Shown here: in pieces, positions 9,791 through 17,830 of the stretch
Layout: every line of letters begins with the position of its first letter
Position numbering within the stretch: the first letter of the stretch is position 1
NCBI RefSeq assembly: GCF_040218225.1
Contig: NZ_JAVJQO010000008.1
Span: 434,001 to 498,000 of the forward strand
Direction of reading: 5' to 3'
Length of the DNA stretch: 64,000 nucleotides
Origin: Gracilimonas sp.
Lineage (GTDB): Bacteria; Bacteroidota; Rhodothermia; Balneolales; Balneolaceae
The notes under the pieces: generated by a model
Seen by the model: the letters and a program-made list of their open reading frames with translations, nothing else
Database searches by the model: none
What the model was told of the DNA's origin: nothing
Made by a program: the position numbers and the translations under genes

Positions 9791-9868
9791 CACTGAAAAA
9801 GAAGTCCTGTTTATTCGGCCTTAGAGGTTTTGAGACTGAGAATCAGAACTGGTTAAAATGAAATGTCA

Positions 9869-10300
9869 CTAAAAGGAGTAGTACTTAAATTCTTCAATAC
9901 CACAATTTAAATTTAGAGAGTCGGTATCTGTAATAAAGCCATTCTCCAGAATTTGTATATCTGGCTTTTCAAGCTGTACAATGAATGCTTCATGCACGTT
10001 CGGTGCCATACAGCGGGTTACACCAATCGGAAACCATGCTTGTTGTGGATGAAAATTACTTTTTATTAGCTCTTCCAAAATAGAACCAGCTCCTTCTTCC
10101 CACTTATTCATCGTGGAATCATAACGAACAAGGAAATAGACATCTTCTGAAGCATATATATCGACAGGAATATCTTGTGCACTGACAATTACCGGCTCAG
10201 GAACTTCAAGCGTTTGATCTTTAGTAATCAAATCACAAGCTGAAAAAAATACTAGGATTACAACGAGAATTCCCGTGTTTGGATATATTGAAAACCTCAT
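9869..10300 (-). CDS. Putative lipoprotein, function unknown
   Basis: A 143-residue protein with a lipoprotein signal: hydrophobic segment ILVVILVF followed by lipobox FSAC (lipidated Cys22). The mature part is acidic and contains three further cysteines (in TRCMAP, and near the C-terminus in LNCGIEE), which could form a disulfide in the periplasm. No known domain is recognised. It is transcribed in the same direction as the downstream Omp85-like gene, 155 bases apart, and the two could be related in the envelope, but nothing more is shown. Confidence 0.65.
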   Translation of the reverse strand: MRFSIYPNTGILVVILVFFSACDLITKDQTLEVPEPVIVSAQDIPVDIYASEDVYFLVRYDSTMNKWEEGAGSILEELIKSNFHPQQAWFPIGVTRCMAPNVHEAFIVQLEKPDIQILENGFITDTDSLNLNCGIEEFKYYSF

Positions 10301-10445
10301 GCAACCTCTTCTCTAAGTTATTTTTAAGGGTTCTCTTAGAATGTATCAAAACCTATCTGCTAAATAAAATAGAATAGACTATTACAAAAATCTCTTGAAG
10401 CATCGGGTACACAACCGAAGAGGTTCAACCCTTCACAAAAAAAGC

Positions 10446-11297
10446 CTACTGAATAATTTCCTTTACAAAATTAGGCAGAGCAAATGCTCCCTGATGAACG
10501 GCTTTATTGTAGTATTTAAGTTCATTCCCAAAACTGCTCAGTCCCTCTTCTACTCTAGTCAATACATCCTCAGCCTGTACTTTAATTCCTTTGGATGCAT
10601 AAGCAAAAGACCACATTCCTGCCGGATATAACGGTATGTAGCCCAAATACATATCAGATTCAGTAAATACATCATTTAAAGCATCAAATACCTGTTTCAT
10701 ACTCTTGTGATAGTCTGCCACCCAGGGAGATTCCGTTTGAGCCGAAAGCACTCCATCCTCCTTTAGTGCATCAAAACAATATTGAAAAAATTCCTTCTCG
10801 AATAATCCTTCAGCCGGACCAACAGGATCTGACCCATCTATTATCACAACATCGTACTTGGCCCTGGCTGCTTTTACAAAAGCGATGCCATCTTCAAACA
10901 ACACATTTAAGCGAGCGTCACCCCATGCCCCAACTCCCGGAAAGAATTCTTTGGACGCACGAACCACAGCTTCATCAATCTCCACCAAATCCAGATGCTT
11001 TACGGATGGGTGCCTGAGCACTTCCCGGGCCGTTCCTCCATCTCCACCACCAATAATGAGCACTTTCTCCGGGTTCGGATGGGCAAACATAACCGGATGA
11101 GCCACCATTTCATGATACACAAACTCATCTTTTTGAGAAAGCATCACCATCCCATCGATGGTCATCAGGTTCCCCCAGGTATCCGTTTCATAGACTTCCA
11201 CTAACTGATAGTCCGTCTGTTCAGAAAATAACAGTTTCTCCAGACCAATGGTTAAGCCAGTTTTCTCGTGATAAAATTCATTGAATTGGATGGGCAT
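10446..11297 (-). CDS. speE: Spermidine synthase
   Basis: A 283-residue aminopropyltransferase. It transfers the aminopropyl group of decarboxylated AdoMet to putrescine, making spermidine. Diagnostic parts are the AdoMet-type motif GGGDGGTAREVLRH (about residues 79-92), LVEIDEAVV, and the catalytic IIDGSDPVGPAEGLF segment (Asp near 155). The length is typical. It is 92 bases downstream of the AdoMet decarboxylase gene on the same strand, whose product supplies its substrate, and is divergent from the arginine decarboxylase/agmatinase operon that supplies putrescine. The start is ATG at 11297. Confidence 0.95.
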   Translation of the reverse strand: MPIQFNEFYHEKTGLTIGLEKLLFSEQTDYQLVEVYETDTWGNLMTIDGMVMLSQKDEFVYHEMVAHPVMFAHPNPEKVLIIGGGDGGTAREVLRHPSVKHLDLVEIDEAVVRASKEFFPGVGAWGDARLNVLFEDGIAFVKAARAKYDVVIIDGSDPVGPAEGLFEKEFFQYCFDALKEDGVLSAQTESPWVADYHKSMKQVFDALNDVFTESDMYLGYIPLYPAGMWSFAYASKGIKVQAEDVLTRVEEGLSSFGNELKYYNKAVHQGAFALPNFVKEIIQ

Positions 11298-11389
11298 GGT
11301 GGTATTAATCGTTTTTCATTATTCGGTAAAACGTTATCCATAAAACGAATAACGCTGAACTAATTCCTCGAGATATATCTATGTGTCAG

Positions 11390-11794
11390 TCAATTCTCCT
11401 GAACATTCACCGTAGGCTTGAAGAGTAATTTTTCGCCCTGTGGTACTTTAAATAAACCACGTTTCATTTCCATACTGCTCACATTTTGAGAGCCAAATGC
11501 TTCTTTAAGATACTCTTGTATTATCCATGGGTCGATAGTATCACCACAGGTGAATATATCTACAGCTGCATAGTTATACTCAGGCCATGTATGGATGGCT
11601 ACATGAGACTCTGCAATCACTACCATACCGCTTACTCCATAAGGACTGAATTTGTGGAAGTTGTGCGAAATGATAGTTGCCCGGGCAGCTTTGGTTGCGC
11701 TGAGCATCGCTTCTTCGATGTATTCTACATCATTAATTTTTGCGCTTTCACAATCATAAAATTCTACTAAAATCTGTCGGCCAAGTGCTTCCAA
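11390..11794 (-). CDS. speD: S-adenosylmethionine decarboxylase proenzyme
   Basis: A 134-residue prokaryotic class 1B AdoMet decarboxylase (also called speH). The proenzyme self-cleaves between Glu62 and Ser63 in AESHVAIHTWPE to form the pyruvoyl cofactor; His68 and Cys83 (IFTCG), needed for processing and catalysis, are both present at the positions known from the Thermotoga enzyme. The start is TTG 11794, since an in-frame TAA lies two codons upstream and the family N-terminus (M..LGR...EFYDC) begins here. It feeds decarboxylated AdoMet to SpeE encoded downstream. Confidence 0.94.
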   Translation of the reverse strand: MEALGRQILVEFYDCESAKINDVEYIEEAMLSATKAARATIISHNFHKFSPYGVSGMVVIAESHVAIHTWPEYNYAAVDIFTCGDTIDPWIIQEYLKEAFGSQNVSSMEMKRGLFKVPQGEKLLFKPTVNVQEN

Positions 11795-12093
11795 TCTTTA
11801 TACAGGTCTGAAATTAAAAGTACAGTGAATGTGCTTCTTAACTAAAAGCGAAAATGTATTTCTTGGCTTGATGAAAGCCGATGATACTTTCTTTTTTAAA
11901 AGCAGAAATAAAGATACATATTTTTAAAGAAAATCAATGTTATGCTCTTTTAAATGTTTTATAAAACTCTCATCAACCCTTATTAACAAATTGTCAAAAC
12001 CCATAATCAGGGTTAAAAATAATAGTGAATTATATTTTATATTAGTCGCCCCTTTGATTTACATTATTCCGTTTTTAAACCCCTTATTATTTA
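11795..12093. promoter_or_regulatory. Divergent AT-rich intergenic region of the polyamine operons
   Basis: A 299-base AT-rich gap separates the minus-strand speD-speE genes from the plus-strand arginine decarboxylase operon, so promoters for both must lie here. I see no riboswitch, no strong terminator and no clear operator. Assignment of exact promoter boxes would be guesswork. Confidence 0.5.
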
Positions 12094-13500
12094 ATGAAGA
12101 ATAACTATTACGAATTAATCGATCAGACGTATCACTTCCCTCAGAATGGTTTTAACCTGGTTGATGGTACGCTAAATTTCAATAATGTAGACCTTAAACA
12201 CCTTATTGATAAATACGGCACCCCCTTTAAGCTTGCCTATCTTCCAAAAATCAGAGAGAAAATTCAACAATCCCGCACATACTTCAATAAAGCGATAGCT
12301 GAAAACAACTACTCTGGTAAATACGAATTTTGTTATTGCACCAAATGCTGTCACTTCAATCATGTGGTTAGAACCGCTCTTAAAGAGAATGTGTCTCTGG
12401 AAACATCTTCAGCTTTTGACATTGATCTGATTGACAACCTGTACAAAAAGGGTGTTTTTTCTCAGGATAAAACTATTGTCCATAATGGATACAAAACGGA
12501 TGATTACATCAAAAAAATTGGACGGCTGAATAAAGAAGGTTTTCGGAATTCAATCTGTGTACTGGATAACGCCCGGGAACTGGATAAGATTATGGCTTTG
12601 GATCTGGATCAGCCCATCAAAATTGGATTACGGATTTCTATTGAGGAAGATCCGCAGGCATCATATTACACCTCCAGGCTGGGTATTAATAAGCGTGAAA
12701 TCCTGGATTTTGTAAAAGAAAGAATTGTAGGAAATGATCAGGTTGAACTGGTAATGGTCCACTTCTTTGTGGATTCGGGTGTAAGCGATAATATGTATTA
12801 CTGGAATGAATTCAAGAAAGCTCTAACCCAGTTTACCAAGATTAAAAAAATTGCTCCTTCTGTTAATGCTTTGAATATCGGCGGCGGATTCCCAATCCAG
12901 AACAGCCTGAGCTTTGAGTTTGATTATGAGTATATAACCGGCGAAATCGTAAGAAATATTCAGGAAGCCTGTAAAGACGAAAATGTTGAAGAGCCTGATA
13001 TCTATACTGAATTCGGAAAATATACCGTTGGGGAAAGCGGAGCCGTCATCTTCCAGGTGCTGGAGCAGAAGCAGCAAAACGATGCCGAGCTTTGGTATTT
13101 GGTTGATAACAGCCTGATGAACACCATCCCTGATGCCTGGTCGATCAATGAAAAATTCATTCTCCTCCCCCTCAATAAATGGCAGAATCAGTATAAACGG
13201 GTAAATATTGGCGGAATCAGCTGTGATCATTCTGATTACTATAATTCAGAAGAGCTCAATCAACAGGTTCTTTTGCCTACTTATTCGGATGACGATGACG
13301 AACCTCTCTACATTGGTTTTTTCCACACGGGCGCTTATCAGGATTCCATCAGCGGATACGGTGGAATCAAACACTGCCTTATCCCTTCTCCCAAACACAT
13401 CGTGGTAGATAAGGACGAGAACGGCAATCTTTTCGATTATGTTTACCGGGGCGAACAAACTGTTGACAATATGCTTAACATACTGGGTTACAATGACTAA
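12094..13500 (+). CDS. speA: Arginine decarboxylase, PLP fold III (Bacteroidetes type)
   Basis: A 468-residue decarboxylase of the alanine-racemase-like fold. The PLP lysine is Lys84 in CYCTKCCHF, a variant typical of the Bacteroidetes arginine decarboxylase; ETSSAFDIDLI and the Gly-rich phosphate loop NIGGGFPIQ follow. The C-terminal barrel contains ISCDHSDYYN and GFFHTGAYQDS, where the second-subunit active-site residues lie. It converts arginine to agmatine. The next gene, agmatinase, overlaps it by 8 bases and would convert agmatine to putrescine, which supports arginine over other diamino acids as the substrate. It is shorter than E. coli SpeA (about 650 residues). Confidence 0.88.
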   Translation: MKNNYYELIDQTYHFPQNGFNLVDGTLNFNNVDLKHLIDKYGTPFKLAYLPKIREKIQQSRTYFNKAIAENNYSGKYEFCYCTKCCHFNHVVRTALKENVSLETSSAFDIDLIDNLYKKGVFSQDKTIVHNGYKTDDYIKKIGRLNKEGFRNSICVLDNARELDKIMALDLDQPIKIGLRISIEEDPQASYYTSRLGINKREILDFVKERIVGNDQVELVMVHFFVDSGVSDNMYYWNEFKKALTQFTKIKKIAPSVNALNIGGGFPIQNSLSFEFDYEYITGEIVRNIQEACKDENVEEPDIYTEFGKYTVGESGAVIFQVLEQKQQNDAELWYLVDNSLMNTIPDAWSINEKFILLPLNKWQNQYKRVNIGGISCDHSDYYNSEELNQQVLLPTYSDDDDEPLYIGFFHTGAYQDSISGYGGIKHCLIPSPKHIVVDKDENGNLFDYVYRGEQTVDNMLNILGYND

Positions 13501-14353
13501 ATTGAATCAACTATTTGCAGGTATAGAGGGAAGTCACAATGAATTTGAGCAAGCCAGGGTCTTGCTTCAGTCTGTTCCCTACGATGGAACCAGTACCTGG
13601 GGAAAAGGTGCCGACCAAGGCTTTGAGGCTTTTCTGGATGCCGCAGAGAACATGGAGATCTATGACATTGAAACCGATAGTGAGGTGTACAAACAAGGCG
13701 TTCATATTATAGACCCCATCCTCGAAGATGCTTCACCTGAAGCTATGTTTGAAGCCGTATATAAAAGCACAAAAGAACTTCTGAAAAAGGATAAATTTCT
13801 CACTTTCTTTGGTGGTGAGCACTCTATTAGTATTGGCATTATCAAGGCTTTTTATGAAGCCCATCCGGATATCACCATCCTTCAGCTGGATGCTCATACC
13901 GATCTCCGCCCTGAGTATCACGGCTCACCATACAATCACGCCTGTGCGGTCTATGATGCCTCTCAAAACGCAAACCTTATACAGGTAGGTATCCGAAGTA
14001 TGGATTCCGGAGAACTTGAATACCTTGACCGCAATAAATGTTATTTTGCAGAAGATATGTATGGCCAAACGGATTGGATGGATGATTCCCTGAGTAAAAT
14101 TACCGACAAGGTGTATATCACACTTGATCTGGATGTCTTTGACCCTTCAATTATGCCTGCGACCGGAACCCCAGAGCCGGGCGGGATGAACTGGAATACA
14201 ATGATTAAATACTTGAAGAAAGTATTTCAGCAAAAGAATGTGCTCGGCTTTGATATTGTTGAACTCGCCCCAATTGAAGGATTTTCTGCACCTCAATTTT
14301 TGGCTGCCAAACTTTACTATAAAATGCTAAGCTATAAATTTGCTAACTCATGA
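13493..14353 (+). CDS. speB: Agmatinase (ureohydrolase family)
   Basis: A 286-residue binuclear manganese hydrolase. Metal ligands are visible: His110 (GGEHSI), Asp133, His135 and Asp137 (DAHTD), Asp212 and Asp214 (TLDLDVFDP). GTPEPGG is also conserved. I chose ATG 13493, which overlaps the decarboxylase stop by 8 bases; a longer in-frame ATG at 13439 would sit inside that gene and adds no family sequence. Arginase or formiminoglutamase activity cannot be excluded from sequence alone, but position after arginine decarboxylase favours cleavage of agmatine to putrescine and urea. Confidence 0.9.
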   Translation: MTKLNQLFAGIEGSHNEFEQARVLLQSVPYDGTSTWGKGADQGFEAFLDAAENMEIYDIETDSEVYKQGVHIIDPILEDASPEAMFEAVYKSTKELLKKDKFLTFFGGEHSISIGIIKAFYEAHPDITILQLDAHTDLRPEYHGSPYNHACAVYDASQNANLIQVGIRSMDSGELEYLDRNKCYFAEDMYGQTDWMDDSLSKITDKVYITLDLDVFDPSIMPATGTPEPGGMNWNTMIKYLKKVFQQKNVLGFDIVELAPIEGFSAPQFLAAKLYYKMLSYKFANS

Positions 14354-15324
14354 GTAATAAAGGACCTGTTTCAGAATTTTTAACCCATCATTTCCGACAC
14401 TTTAACGCTGCTACTGTTGTTGATGCTGCCAAAGCCTACGAAAAACAGCTTGATTCGGGAGCAAAAATGATGATCACTCTTGCCGGAGCCATGAGTTCAG
14501 GTGAGTTAGGATTATCACTGGCAGAGATGATACGGGAGGATAAGGTTCATATTATTACTTGTACCGGAGCCAACCTGGAAGAGGATGTGTTCAATCTCGT
14601 GGCCCATAATTATTACAAACGAATTCCGAATTACAGGGATTTGAGCCCACAGGACGAGCAAGATCTCCTCGATCAGCATTTCAACCGCGTAACAGATACC
14701 TGTATACCGGAAGAAGAAGCCATGCGGCGAATTGAAGATCACCTGGTTAAACGCTGGGTAAAAGCCACCGAAGAAGGGAATCGACATTTCCCTCACGAAT
14801 ACTTCTTTGATCTGCTCTTGAGTGGCGATCTGGAAGATGACTACCAGATTGATCCAAAAGATTCCTGGTTAATGGCAGCGGCAGAAAAAAATATCCCTGT
14901 TATTGTTCCGGGCTGGGAAGATTCAACCTGTGGTAATTTCTTTGCCTCCCATTGTATTGAGGGCCGCACAAAGCCAAACGCGATGAAGTCAGGAATTGAA
15001 TACATGATATATCTGTCTGATTGGTATTTGAATAACTCAGACAGCGGAGTTGGCTTTTTCCAGATTGGCGGCGGAATTGCCGGGGATTTCCCAATATGCG
15101 TAGTGCCAATGATTGAGCAGGACCTTGGGAAGGAAGATGTACCTCTTTGGTCTTATTTCTGTCAAATTAGCGATTCCACAACCAGCTATGGTTCATACTC
15201 AGGCGCTGTTCCCAATGAAAAGATAACCTGGGGCAAACTTGGAATAGACACTCCAAAGTTCATAATTGAATCTGATGCTACTATTGTAGCTCCGCTTATT
15301 TTTGCTTATCTGTTGGGTTGGTAA
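14350..15324 (+). CDS. Deoxyhypusine-synthase-like protein, probable polyamine (homospermidine) synthase
   Basis: A 324-residue member of the deoxyhypusine synthase family. ITLAGAMSSGELG, CTGANLEEDVFNL and FFQIGGGIAGDFP are NAD/spermidine-site segments, and Lys296 in TWGKLG matches the lysine that forms the aminobutyl-enzyme intermediate in the eukaryotic enzyme. Bacteria have no eIF5A, so the acceptor is probably a free amine: transfer to putrescine would give homospermidine. It overlaps the agmatinase stop by 4 bases (ATGA), making it the third gene of a putrescine-forming operon. Family membership is clear; the product is inference. Confidence 0.85.
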   Translation: MSNKGPVSEFLTHHFRHFNAATVVDAAKAYEKQLDSGAKMMITLAGAMSSGELGLSLAEMIREDKVHIITCTGANLEEDVFNLVAHNYYKRIPNYRDLSPQDEQDLLDQHFNRVTDTCIPEEEAMRRIEDHLVKRWVKATEEGNRHFPHEYFFDLLLSGDLEDDYQIDPKDSWLMAAAEKNIPVIVPGWEDSTCGNFFASHCIEGRTKPNAMKSGIEYMIYLSDWYLNNSDSGVGFFQIGGGIAGDFPICVVPMIEQDLGKEDVPLWSYFCQISDSTTSYGSYSGAVPNEKITWGKLGIDTPKFIIESDATIVAPLIFAYLLGW

Positions 15325-15348
15325 CCTGCTAATTAATCATCTTACTGC

Positions 15349-17331
15349 GTGGCTATTACTGATAAAAAAATCTCTGCAGAAACAGCACTGTACATCTACA
15401 AAAACCTAATGCTCCCCCGGCGCATTGAAGAACGAATGTTGATGCTGCTTCGGCAGAATAAAATCAGCAAGTGGTTTTCGGGGATTGGTCAGGAGGCGGT
15501 TGGAGTTGGAGTCTCCCTCTCTTCTGAACCGGAAGATTATATTCTGCCCATGCATCGAAACCTGGGGGTATTCACGGCTCGGAATGTGCCCTTCTACCCT
15601 CTTTTTTGCCAGTTGTTTGGGAAAGCTGATGGTTTTACCGAGGGGCGCGATCGGTCCTTTCACTTTGGTATTCCCGAACACAAGATTATCGGGATGATCT
15701 CTCATCTTGCTGCTATGATGCCCGTAGCTGACGGACTTGCGTTGGCGATGAAAATGCGGGAAGAAAAAGCCGTTGCATTTTCTTTTTGTGGGGATGGAGC
15801 TACAAGTGAAGGAGATTTTCATGAGGCCTTGAACCTGGCTGCCGTTTGGAAGTTGCCGGTCGTTTTTATTATTGAGAATAATGGCTATGGACTATCAACA
15901 CCTACATCAGAGCAATTTGCATGCGAGCATTTATCAGATCGTGCCAAAGGTTATGGGATGCATGGCTTCAATATTGATGGGAACAATATTTTTGAAGTTA
16001 TGGACACCGTTGGCAAAGCCAGAGAACTCGCTTTAAAAGGTGAACCGGTTCTCATCGAGGCCAAAACATTCCGCATGCGTGGCCATGAAGAAGCTTCTGG
16101 TACTCATTATGTACCGGATGTATTATTTGAAAACTGGGCTGAAAAAGATCCGATTCACCGGTTCGAACGGTATATAGAATCCGAAGGTTTATTTACTCAG
16201 GATGAGTTGGAAAAGGTCACAAAAGAAATAGATGCATCCTTTAAAAAGGATCTTAATAAGGCTTTAGCAGCAGCAGACCCCGTTTTTGACGAAGAACGTG
16301 AACTTGAAAGAGTGTATGCCTCGCAACCAGAGAATCTCCCTCCTCATAAAGATGGCGTTACTTACGAACACCGATTTGTAGACGCTATACAAGCCTCATT
16401 ACGGCAAGCTTTTGAAGAAGACAGCAAGTTCCTCATTATGGGACAAGACATTGCAGAGTATGGAGGTGTTTTTAAAATCACGGAAGGCTTTTTAGAGCAA
16501 TTTGGCCATCAAAGAGTCAGGAATACCCCAATTATTGAATCCGGGGCTTTGGGAGCAGCCATGGGTTTGGCTTTGGAAGGATTTAAGCCCGTTGTAGAAA
16601 TGCAGTTTGCTGATTTCATTTCCTGTGGATTTAACCAGATCGTCAACAACATTGCGAAAACCCGTTACAGGTGGTCTCCTCCCCTTAATATCACGATTCG
16701 CGCACCTCATGGAGGTGGTGTTGGAGCCGGGCCCTATCATTCCCAATCGGTTGAAGGTTGGTTTATGCAAATTCCCGGCTTAAAAGTAGTGGTACCAGGA
16801 ACAGTTGAGGATGCCATGAATTTGATGTACAGCTCCCTTCATGATCCAAATCCGGTGTTATTTTTTGAGCATAAAAAGCTATATAGAAGTCTGAAAGACA
16901 ATATTTCTGACAAAGCAAATTATGAGCCTCTGGGAAAAGCAAAAGTCAGAAGAGAGGGTTCCGATGCCACCATCATCACCTATGGAATGGGAGTTCAGTG
17001 GGCTCTTTCCGCTGCTGAATCATATGACAAAAAAGGAACCTCACTGGAAGTTTTGGATCTGAGAACGCTTCTTCCTCTTGATAAAGAGTCTATCAGACAA
17101 ACGGTTCAGAAAACCGGTAAAGCGTTGCTGTTACAGGAACCTACTCTGACACTTGGGCCCTTAAGCGAAATTTCAGCTATCATTTCTGAGGAGTGCTTTG
17201 AATGGCTCGATGCTCCGGTTCTGCGCTGTGCTTCCCTGGATATGCCTATTCCTCACGACAAAGGGCTTGAAGAAGGATTTATGGCTGATTCAAAGCTGGA
17301 GAAAATGCTTAACAAACTCATTGACTACTAA
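15349..17331 (+). CDS. 2-oxoacid dehydrogenase E1, alpha-beta fusion
   Basis: A 660-residue thiamine-diphosphate enzyme that joins E1 alpha (about residues 1-320) and E1 beta (about 340-660), usually two proteins. The TPP motif runs from GDG (148-150) to NN (177-178); MRGHEEASGTH is the alpha phosphorylation-loop region. The beta half has GQDIAEYGGVFKITEGF and HGGGVGAGPYHSQS. It would decarboxylate a branched-chain 2-oxoacid (or pyruvate) and hand the acyl group to a lipoyl E2 encoded elsewhere. The fused arrangement is common in Bacteroidota. The start is GTG 15349, 24 bases after the preceding stop. Confidence 0.9.
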   Translation: MAITDKKISAETALYIYKNLMLPRRIEERMLMLLRQNKISKWFSGIGQEAVGVGVSLSSEPEDYILPMHRNLGVFTARNVPFYPLFCQLFGKADGFTEGRDRSFHFGIPEHKIIGMISHLAAMMPVADGLALAMKMREEKAVAFSFCGDGATSEGDFHEALNLAAVWKLPVVFIIENNGYGLSTPTSEQFACEHLSDRAKGYGMHGFNIDGNNIFEVMDTVGKARELALKGEPVLIEAKTFRMRGHEEASGTHYVPDVLFENWAEKDPIHRFERYIESEGLFTQDELEKVTKEIDASFKKDLNKALAAADPVFDEERELERVYASQPENLPPHKDGVTYEHRFVDAIQASLRQAFEEDSKFLIMGQDIAEYGGVFKITEGFLEQFGHQRVRNTPIIESGALGAAMGLALEGFKPVVEMQFADFISCGFNQIVNNIAKTRYRWSPPLNITIRAPHGGGVGAGPYHSQSVEGWFMQIPGLKVVVPGTVEDAMNLMYSSLHDPNPVLFFEHKKLYRSLKDNISDKANYEPLGKAKVRREGSDATIITYGMGVQWALSAAESYDKKGTSLEVLDLRTLLPLDKESIRQTVQKTGKALLLQEPTLTLGPLSEISAIISEECFEWLDAPVLRCASLDMPIPHDKGLEEGFMADSKLEKMLNKLIDY

Positions 17332-17347
17332 CTTATGATCTATAAGT

Positions 17348-17830
17348 ATGGAAAATGCAAAGAGTATAGACCGATTAAATTACAGCTGGAATATTTTCCT
17401 TCATCAACAGGAACTCATAAAGTTAGCGGATAATAAAATCCGGTATTTGTTTTTAGTGAGCAGTGTGGCTGCCACTTTTATTCTTACCGAATTCAAAGCA
17501 CTCGAAACGATTAACATCCCGGAGTTTCTATTTATGGGTTCTTTTGTGCTATTTCTGGCTTTCGCCTCTCTGACTATAAAGCCGAGAAAAACTCACTCAG
17601 GCGGACAGGGAACTTCAAAACTGATCTATCATAAAGACATCATTTCAAGACCAGACAGAAAAACCTACGCCAACGAATTTCTTGAAGCCTCTGATGAAGA
17701 GTTGCAGGGCGACCTTCTCCATCAGATTTATGAGATTTCTGCTATCGCCAATAAGAAATACCGGTACTATAATTATTCTTTTTATACCCTTTGTGTACAA
17801 ATCGTACTCTTCTTTGTCGTGCTTATTTAG
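17348..17830 (+). CDS. Membrane protein resembling Pycsar TM effectors (DUF5706-like)
   Basis: A 160-residue protein. An N-terminal amphipathic helix with ADNKIRYLF leads into two membrane segments (about 31-47 and 57-75), a short IKPRK stretch, a soluble helical part (LQGDLLHQIYEISAIANKKY) and a C-terminal membrane segment (about 141-160). This layout matches PycTM/DUF5706 proteins, membrane effectors of cCMP/cUMP-based phage defence, as I recall the family. No nucleotide cyclase is next to it; it follows the E1 gene by 16 bases and its stop overlaps the convergent transporter gene. The family assignment is from pattern only. Confidence 0.55.
   Translation: MENAKSIDRLNYSWNIFLHQQELIKLADNKIRYLFLVSSVAATFILTEFKALETINIPEFLFMGSFVLFLAFASLTIKPRKTHSGGQGTSKLIYHKDIISRPDRKTYANEFLEASDEELQGDLLHQIYEISAIANKKYRYYNYSFYTLCVQIVLFFVVLI

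What the first reader, a model, noticed from the sequence alone, without database searches (positions are those of the whole stretch)
14350..15324. Polyamine operon carries a deoxyhypusine-synthase-like enzyme with the catalytic lysine
Seen: three overlapping genes, arginine decarboxylase, agmatinase and a DHS-family protein with Lys296 in TWGKLG, divergent from speD-speE. Known: eukaryotic DHS moves the aminobutyl group of spermidine to eIF5A; bacteria have no eIF5A. Inference: the protein uses spermidine (from speE) and putrescine (from agmatinase) to make homospermidine, so the two divergent operons could form one pathway with an extra product.
Basis: partly seen in the sequence, partly recalled or inferred. 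Interest (0 to 1): 0.65.

Follow-up and report, generated by a model that had tools for sequence, protein, structure and literature searches.

The report
Deep-branching bacterial homospermidine synthase candidate
A Balneolaceae bacterium carries, beside its spermidine genes, a distant cousin of the human enzyme deoxyhypusine synthase that most likely joins two putrescine molecules into the related polyamine homospermidine, and the same uncharacterised enzyme is widespread in a large bacterial group in which homospermidine is a known cell component.

Summary
In detail: ADC, agmatinase and a DHS-family protein (Lys296) in overlapping genes, divergent from speD-speE. The interpretation needs changing. 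(1) The protein falls far below the cut-offs of the archaeal-type DHS, SpeY-like and caldomycin-synthase-like families and forms its own highly conserved clade ("type C") in Bacteroidota/Balneolota. (2) Type C and spermidine genes are near alternatives: in the window's family a close speE occurs in 2 of 18 type-C genomes against 14 of 19 without it, and in 0 of 28 type-C genomes sampled elsewhere in the phylum. Spermidine is therefore unlikely to be the usual donor. (3) All 18, and 24 of the 28, have a recognisable agmatine-to-putrescine route; 20 of the 46 have only agmatine deiminase plus N-carbamoylputrescine amidohydrolase, which argues against agmatine coupling. Best explanation (inferred, about 0.7): NAD-dependent coupling of two putrescines to homospermidine, in place of spermidine synthesis. 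In the window's genus one locus holds speDE only, both sets, or ADC-agmatinase-DHS only; the window shows the double state. I found no biochemistry for this clade in the open-access library searched. A new variant of a known kind (DHS-like homospermidine synthase).

The parts
14350..15324 (+). DHS-family protein, type C; proposed homospermidine synthase, 324 aa; catalytic Lys296
   Evidence: PF01916 143 bits; fold match to DHS, 8put_A Z 24.9, rmsd 3.8, 283 residues; K296, W294, E290, D191 kept, N196/D246/Y283 at the places of human D243/H288/D316
13493..14353 (+). agmatinase (ORF can be read from 13439; relatives point to 13493); overlaps DHS by 4 bp
   Evidence: TIGR01230 over cut-off; start from relatives
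12094..13500 (+). short SpeA-like decarboxylase, taken as arginine decarboxylase
   Evidence: PF02784; below SpeA cut-offs; ortholog in 18 of 18 type-C and 0 of 19 other Balneolaceae panel genomes
11390..11794 (-). speD, S-adenosylmethionine decarboxylase (spermidine route)
   Evidence: TIGR03330 over cut-off
10446..11297 (-). speE, spermidine synthase
   Evidence: NF002010 and TIGR00417 over cut-off
11795..12093 (.). 299-bp divergent intergenic region between speD and ADC
   Evidence: ORF coordinates, sequence read; no Rfam match in 9800-17500; promoter-like sites no more than in shuffles (19 vs 16.9)
15349..17331 (+). fused pyruvate/2-oxoacid dehydrogenase E1 alpha-beta gene that marks the locus; not part of the pathway
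   Evidence: E1_dh + Transket_pyr + Transketolase_C; next to the swapped genes in G000, G022, G024, G026, G027

Best explanation
The protein is a homospermidine synthase of a separate, uncharacterised branch of the deoxyhypusine-synthase family. Arginine is decarboxylated to agmatine, agmatinase makes putrescine, and the DHS-like enzyme oxidises one putrescine with NAD+, holds its aminobutyl group as an imine on Lys296 with loss of ammonia, passes it to a second putrescine and reduces the product to homospermidine. It normally stands in for spermidine synthesis; this genome is one of the few with both routes. Shown: the genes, the family, the conserved catalytic residues, the phylum-wide conservation, the near-exclusion of speD/speE, the interchangeable putrescine routes. 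Inferred: substrate, product, chemistry.
For: DHS fold and catalytic set: (K296, W294, E290, D191, T72, D309 invariant in 56 of 56). Spermidine not needed: close SpeE in 2 of 18 type-C Balneolaceae vs 14 of 19 without type C, and 0 of 28 other type-C genomes; NspC over cut-off 0 of 65. Putrescine as common point: agmatinase (56-100% identity) in 9 of 18, agmatine deiminase + N-carbamoylputrescine amidohydrolase in the other 9 (2 of 18 have both); other genomes 24 of 28 with a route. In 6 of 6 genomes of one sub-group (G120, G166, G210, G247, G251, G371) the genes run DHS-SpeA-NCPAH-deiminase in a row with no agmatinase. Same locus in one genus in three states. Phenotype: sym-homospermidine is the main polyamine of two Flavobacterium species (27.3 and 20.5 umol/g, spermidine 0.2-0.3; PMC8570120 passages) and stated for all Flavobacteriaceae (PMC3072086 passage); a Flavobacteriaceae species, Confluentibacter citreus (L205), carries type C. 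DHS homologues that make homospermidine from putrescine are established as SpeY (PMC9992855, PMC10407285 passages).
Against: No enzyme of this clade has been assayed as far as I could find. Its clade is separate from SpeY-like and CdmS-like proteins, so function cannot be carried over by homology alone. Asp243, His288 and Asp316 of human DHS are replaced; His288 is a proposed proton acceptor/donor (PMC7226451 passage), and its place is Asp246 here. The modelled active-site loop 277-291 is of low confidence (pLDDT under 50). In 56 of 80 named loci (mostly Chitinophagaceae-like) and 14 of 40 others none of the polyamine genes tested lies in the stretch, some stretches being short. Four type-C genomes (G123, G133, G155, G280) show no clear putrescine route. 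Presence counts are not corrected for relatedness. No polyamine profile of the window's organism was found.
Confidence: 0.7

Rival explanations
1. One reading: the enzyme moves the aminobutyl group of spermidine (from SpeE) to putrescine, giving homospermidine, as plant HSS and as a side reaction of DHS.
For: speD/speE stand divergently next to the operon here and in G026; DHS side reaction of this kind is reported (PMC7780104 passages).
Against: 44 of 46 type-C panel genomes have no close SpeE, 41 of 46 no SpeD at all; three of the five with SpeD (G068, G093, G149) also have a distant SpeE-like hit at 29-37%. 0 of 65 have an over-cut-off NspC. Residues around spermidine in human DHS (D243, H288, D316) are changed.
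Confidence: 0.1
2. Caldomycin-synthase-like: it couples two agmatines to 1,9-bis(guanidino)-5-azanonane, which agmatinase hydrolyses to homospermidine, as in Thermus.
For: ADC and a ureohydrolase gene are in the same operon here; T. thermophilus CdmS plus TtSpeBap works this way (PMC10981699, parts 1-2 of 4 read).
Against: NF002699 score 96.6 vs cut-off 500; separate clade; CdmS Phe204/Leu286 positions are Asn196/Tyr283. 20 of 46 type-C genomes have the deiminase/amidohydrolase route and no agmatinase of 36% identity or more over full length; some of these 20 do have weaker arginase-family hits (e.g. G031, G032 31% near full length; G039, G251 36% over part).
Confidence: 0.1
3. It modifies a protein, e.g. 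the lysine of EF-P, as DHS modifies eIF5A.
For: Same fold and catalytic lysine as DHS; EF-P of the genome has a lysine loop HVKPGKGPA.
Against: The loop KPGKG is read in 22 of 26 EF-P genes, 15 with and 7 without type C (6 without, 1 CdmS-type), one genome with a SpeY-like gene has another loop and 3 were not located: no link with type C. The gene is linked to amine genes, not to EF-P.
Confidence: 0.03
4. It acts on another amine pair (for instance homospermidine or aminopropyl products made by SpeE from homospermidine) and homospermidine is not the main product.
For: Changed pocket residues; type C often lies apart from other polyamine genes.
Against: Putrescine routes in 42 of 46 panel genomes and the four-gene DHS-SpeA-NCPAH-deiminase order.
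Confidence: 0.07

Closest known systems
SpeY, DHS-like homospermidine synthase of cyanobacteria, SAR11 and others (NCBIfam NF001980 'homospermidine biosynthesis protein' is the nearest model by score)
   Same: PF01916, catalytic Lys, gene clusters with agmatine-to-putrescine genes; proposed same reaction
   Different: 110.9 vs cut-off 450 bits; 21-24% identity to the five SpeY-like Bacteroidota proteins; separate clade; Asp246/Tyr283 instead of Asn/Leu. That SpeY as published equals NF001980 is my reading, not tested.
Caldomycin synthase CdmS of Thermus thermophilus (NF002699)
   Same: PF01916, catalytic Lys, ends in homospermidine, linked to arginine decarboxylation
   Different: 96.6 vs 500 bits; clade and pocket differ; agmatinase is dispensable for type-C genomes
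Deoxyhypusine synthase of eukaryotes and archaea
   Same: fold (8put_A Z 24.9; 1dhs Z 24.6), Lys329, Trp327, Glu323, Asp238
   Different: 86.8 vs 304.25 bits (TIGR00321); H288, D243, D316 replaced; no eIF5A-type partner indicated
Plant homospermidine synthase (DHS duplicate)
   Same: product proposed
   Different: uses spermidine as donor (PMC7780104 passages); clade not compared here, no plant sequence was fetched
Alphaproteobacterial homospermidine synthase HSS
   Same: reaction from putrescine
   Different: non-homologous to DHS/SpeY according to PMC9992855 (passage)

Membership tests
PF01916 deoxyhypusine synthase family | score over the Pfam cut-off, near full length | tested here: met
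   143 bits vs 27, profile 11-287 of 288
PF01916 deoxyhypusine synthase family | DHS fold | tested here: met
   AF2 model pLDDT 87.6, pTM 0.87; DHS chains head the list, Z 24.9
SpeY-like (NF001980) | curated score cut-off 450 | tested here: not met
   110.9 bits; controls L131 566.5 and L138 466.7 pass
SpeY-like (NF001980) | homospermidine formed from putrescine | not testable with these tools
   needs enzyme assay
Caldomycin synthase (NF002699) | curated score cut-off 500 | tested here: not met
   96.6 bits; 5 of 8 other Bacteroidota proteins tested pass with 557.9-599.3
Caldomycin synthase (NF002699) | Phe204 and Leu286 of CdmS in place of human Asp243/Asp316 | tested here: not met
   Asn196 and Tyr283, 56 of 56
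Caldomycin synthase (NF002699) | ureohydrolase partner available | tested here: not met
   20 of 46 type-C panel genomes without an agmatinase of 36% or more over full length; the window genome itself has one
Deoxyhypusine synthase sensu stricto (TIGR00321) | curated score cut-off 304.25 | tested here: not met
   86.8 bits
Deoxyhypusine synthase sensu stricto (TIGR00321) | catalytic Lys329 | tested here: met
   K296, 56 of 56
Deoxyhypusine synthase sensu stricto (TIGR00321) | His288 | tested here: not met
   Asp246, 56 of 56
Plant-type homospermidine synthase | descent from plant DHS | not tested
   no plant sequence was compared
Plant-type homospermidine synthase | spermidine available as donor | tested here: not met
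   no SpeD in 41 of 46 type-C panel genomes, no NspC over cut-off; met in the window genome itself

The most novel reading that the evidence does not exclude
Type C is a fourth, independently specialised DHS-family enzyme and the main homospermidine synthase of Bacteroidota/Balneolota, whose presence or absence decides whether a species makes homospermidine or spermidine; the window's genus has been caught in the middle of the swap, with both triamine routes at one locus and possibly a mixed product (aminopropyl-homospermidine) from SpeE acting on homospermidine.
Probability: 0.5. Interest if true: 0.65.

Novelty: new variant of a known kind. Interest (0 to 1): 0.45.

Why it matters
Homospermidine and spermidine are two alternative triamines that have been used to classify Bacteroidota; a 2004 survey of exactly these two in the phylum exists (title seen only in a reference list). 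A clear candidate gene that nearly excludes the spermidine genes turns this into a testable genotype-phenotype rule. The window's genus offers a natural experiment in replacing one essential-type polyamine by another at a single locus. It also shows that 'deoxyhypusine synthase' annotations in this phylum cover at least three separate families.

Tried and rejected
Spermidine donor as the general reaction: tested through SpeD, SpeE and NspC presence; not supported. CdmS-like agmatine coupling: tested through family score, residues and agmatinase presence; not supported. EF-P modification: tested through the loop; no link. RNA element or clear promoter in the divergent region: none found (the sigma-70 scan does not cover Bacteroidota-type promoters).

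Thresholds of mine: agmatinase 56% or more ('ortholog') and 36-40% over full length ('agmatinase-like', 7 genomes); deiminase PF04371 260 bits or more; NCPAH 280 bits or more of TIGR03381, whose own cut-off (410) no panel genome reaches (0 of 65), so that name rests on similarity plus its place beside the deiminase. G021 and G025 have weaker PF04371 hits (216, 179 bits) that I did not count. The sets were transcribed by hand. Rows dropped: of 30 genomes, G354 (gene split over contigs) and G281 (33% partial match) were left out of the panel; the panel holds 18 of 28 type-C and 19 of 64 other Balneolaceae genomes.

Score bands (392 genomes, 298 with a PF01916 match): by a hand count of a listing that is cut short, about 129 genomes lie in the CdmS-like band, 17 in the SpeY-like band, one apart, and the rest, about 150, in or below the type-C band; only those were checked by identity.

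Where type C joins the other families is unresolved: long stem, long-branch warnings in both trees. The second tree joins the Haloferax DHS to the type-C stem, which may be an artefact. A structural match to the AgrE C-terminal part (6lrh, Z 18.0, 212 residues) was noted and not followed. All 10 paper searches gave no listing that describes a characterised DHS homologue from Bacteroidota or Balneolota; this library is open-licence only. Dyadobacter fermentans is reported with spermidine as main polyamine (PMC3035232 passage); I could not check its genome by name.

Full report
What is there. Three overlapping + strand genes, a SpeA-like decarboxylase (12094-13500), agmatinase (to 14353) and a DHS-family protein (14350-15324), face away from speD-speE. 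The DHS protein is the only PF01916 member of the 3.54-Mb genome. The genome's family code f1 is Balneolaceae: two members match named contigs by length, Rhodohalobacter sulfatireducens and Balneola sp. SP292. The agmatinase start is more likely 13493 than 13439.

What family. It scores 143 bits against the general DHS model but far below every specific model: SpeY-like 110.9 of 450, caldomycin synthase 96.6 of 500, DHS TIGR00321 86.8 of 304. Of eight other DHS-family proteins from the phylum, five pass as caldomycin-synthase type, two as SpeY type and one passes neither. The window's relatives form a third kind, here called type C: 67-95% identical among themselves and 21-26% identical to the others. 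Type C is one side of a branch with support 100/100, and 100/98 in a second tree without three long rows; where it joins the others is unresolved. It was found in 28 of 92 Balneolaceae genomes, in 28 of 30 hand-picked phylum genomes as a full-length match, and in at least 594 stretches of named genome contigs, a capped list of which 80 were kept.

Active site. Human Lys329, Trp327, Glu323 and Asp238 correspond to Lys296, Trp294, Glu290 and Asp191, all invariant in 56 of 56 members. Asp243, His288 and Asp316 are replaced by Asn196, Asp246 and Tyr283, also invariant. CdmS-type and SpeY-type proteins have Asn at the His288 place and Leu at the Asp316 place, so type C has its own pocket. The predicted structure (pLDDT 87.6, pTM 0.87) matches DHS structures best (8put_A Z 24.9, rmsd 3.8, 283 residues), but loop 277-291, which holds Glu290 and Tyr283, is modelled with low confidence.

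Which substrate. I used a panel of 65 genomes: 18 Balneolaceae with type C, 19 without, and 28 other type-C genomes. SpeD: 3 of 18, 14 of 19, 2 of 28. Close SpeE (67% or more): 2 of 18, 14 of 19, 0 of 28. The alternative spermidine enzyme NspC is over its cut-off in 0 of 65. So the enzyme normally works in cells without a recognised spermidine route. The short ADC accompanies type C in 18 of 18 and is absent from 19 of 19 without it; elsewhere 13 of 28 have it, and others have a long SpeA. For agmatine to putrescine, 9 of the 18 have agmatinase (2 of these also the deiminase pair) and the other 9 have agmatine deiminase plus an NCPAH-like amidohydrolase. Of the 28, 6 have agmatinase (one of them also the pair), 7 an agmatinase-like protein, 11 only the pair, and 4 no clear route. 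In six genomes the order is DHS-SpeA-NCPAH-deiminase in a row (G120, G166, G210, G247, G251, G371). The common point of both routes is putrescine. This speaks for putrescine + putrescine and against an agmatine-coupling enzyme that needs a ureohydrolase, though several of the 20 agmatinase-less genomes hold weaker arginase-family proteins. These counts are not corrected for relatedness.

The locus as a natural experiment. In the window's genus the same site, marked by a fused dehydrogenase E1 gene and its neighbours, holds speE-speD only (G024, with 138 bp between speD and the E1 gene), speE-speD plus ADC-agmatinase-DHS (G000 the window, G026), or ADC-agmatinase-DHS only (G022, G027). G021, G023 and G025 also have type C without SpeD; their loci were not compared gene by gene. 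The direction of the change was not determined. The window genome also keeps the deiminase/NCPAH pair elsewhere (contig 2), as do G026 and G024, so it may hold two complete triamine pathways.

Phenotype. In the library, sym-homospermidine is the main polyamine of two Flavobacterium species and is stated for all Flavobacteriaceae; Dyadobacter fermentans has mainly spermidine (passages). One named Flavobacteriaceae genome, Confluentibacter citreus, carries type C. I could not match measured and sequenced strains one to one.

Known chemistry. DHS-like SpeY makes homospermidine from putrescine (passages). T. thermophilus CdmS couples two agmatines and a ureohydrolase completes homospermidine (PMC10981699, parts 1-2 of 4 read). 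Plant HSS and the DHS side reaction use spermidine + putrescine (passages). Type C most likely works like SpeY without being shown to be a member of that family.

Limits. Context is uneven: within the stretches seen, 26 of 40 genome loci but only 24 of 80 named loci have one of the tested polyamine genes nearby. EF-P modification found no support (loop KPGKG in 22 of 26, with and without type C). No assay exists here.

Verdict. Observation confirmed; product plausible; proposed donor not supported. The interest lies in a phylum-wide, unassigned DHS-family branch and its near-exclusion of spermidine genes, with the window as a rare double state.

Noticed in passing
window 13439-14353: The agmatinase ORF can be read from 13439, but relatives start at the position of 13493, overlapping ADC by 8 bp.
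   Followed up: yes
L091, L100 (between agmatinase and DHS); L101, L106 (after DHS): A 505-525 aa ORF with a carbon-nitrogen-hydrolase part lies next to type-C DHS in these four loci; role unknown, perhaps a polyamine conjugate or amide enzyme.
   Followed up: partly
genomes G009, G011, G012, G014, G020 (Balneolaceae): These five have neither type-C DHS, SpeD, close SpeE, the short ADC, agmatinase nor deiminase hits: no recognised triamine route.
   Followed up: no
speDE-type Balneolaceae such as G024, G001, G002: They have the deiminase/NCPAH pair but no detectable SpeA-type or short arginine decarboxylase by the window query; their source of agmatine is unknown.
   Followed up: no
L231:3905-4948, L232:3905-4948: Nostoc plasmids carry a DHS-family gene that groups with the caldomycin-synthase type in the tree, beside an aminotransferase (rocD in L232).
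   Followed up: partly
L133:2053-3081: A further DHS-family protein that passes neither the SpeY nor the caldomycin-synthase cut-off and sits apart in the tree, next to a SpeA-like ORF.
   Followed up: no
G068:C65:32476-33696: A 619-aa ORF holds both a SpeD and a distant SpeE match, apparently a fusion, in a type-C genome.
   Followed up: no
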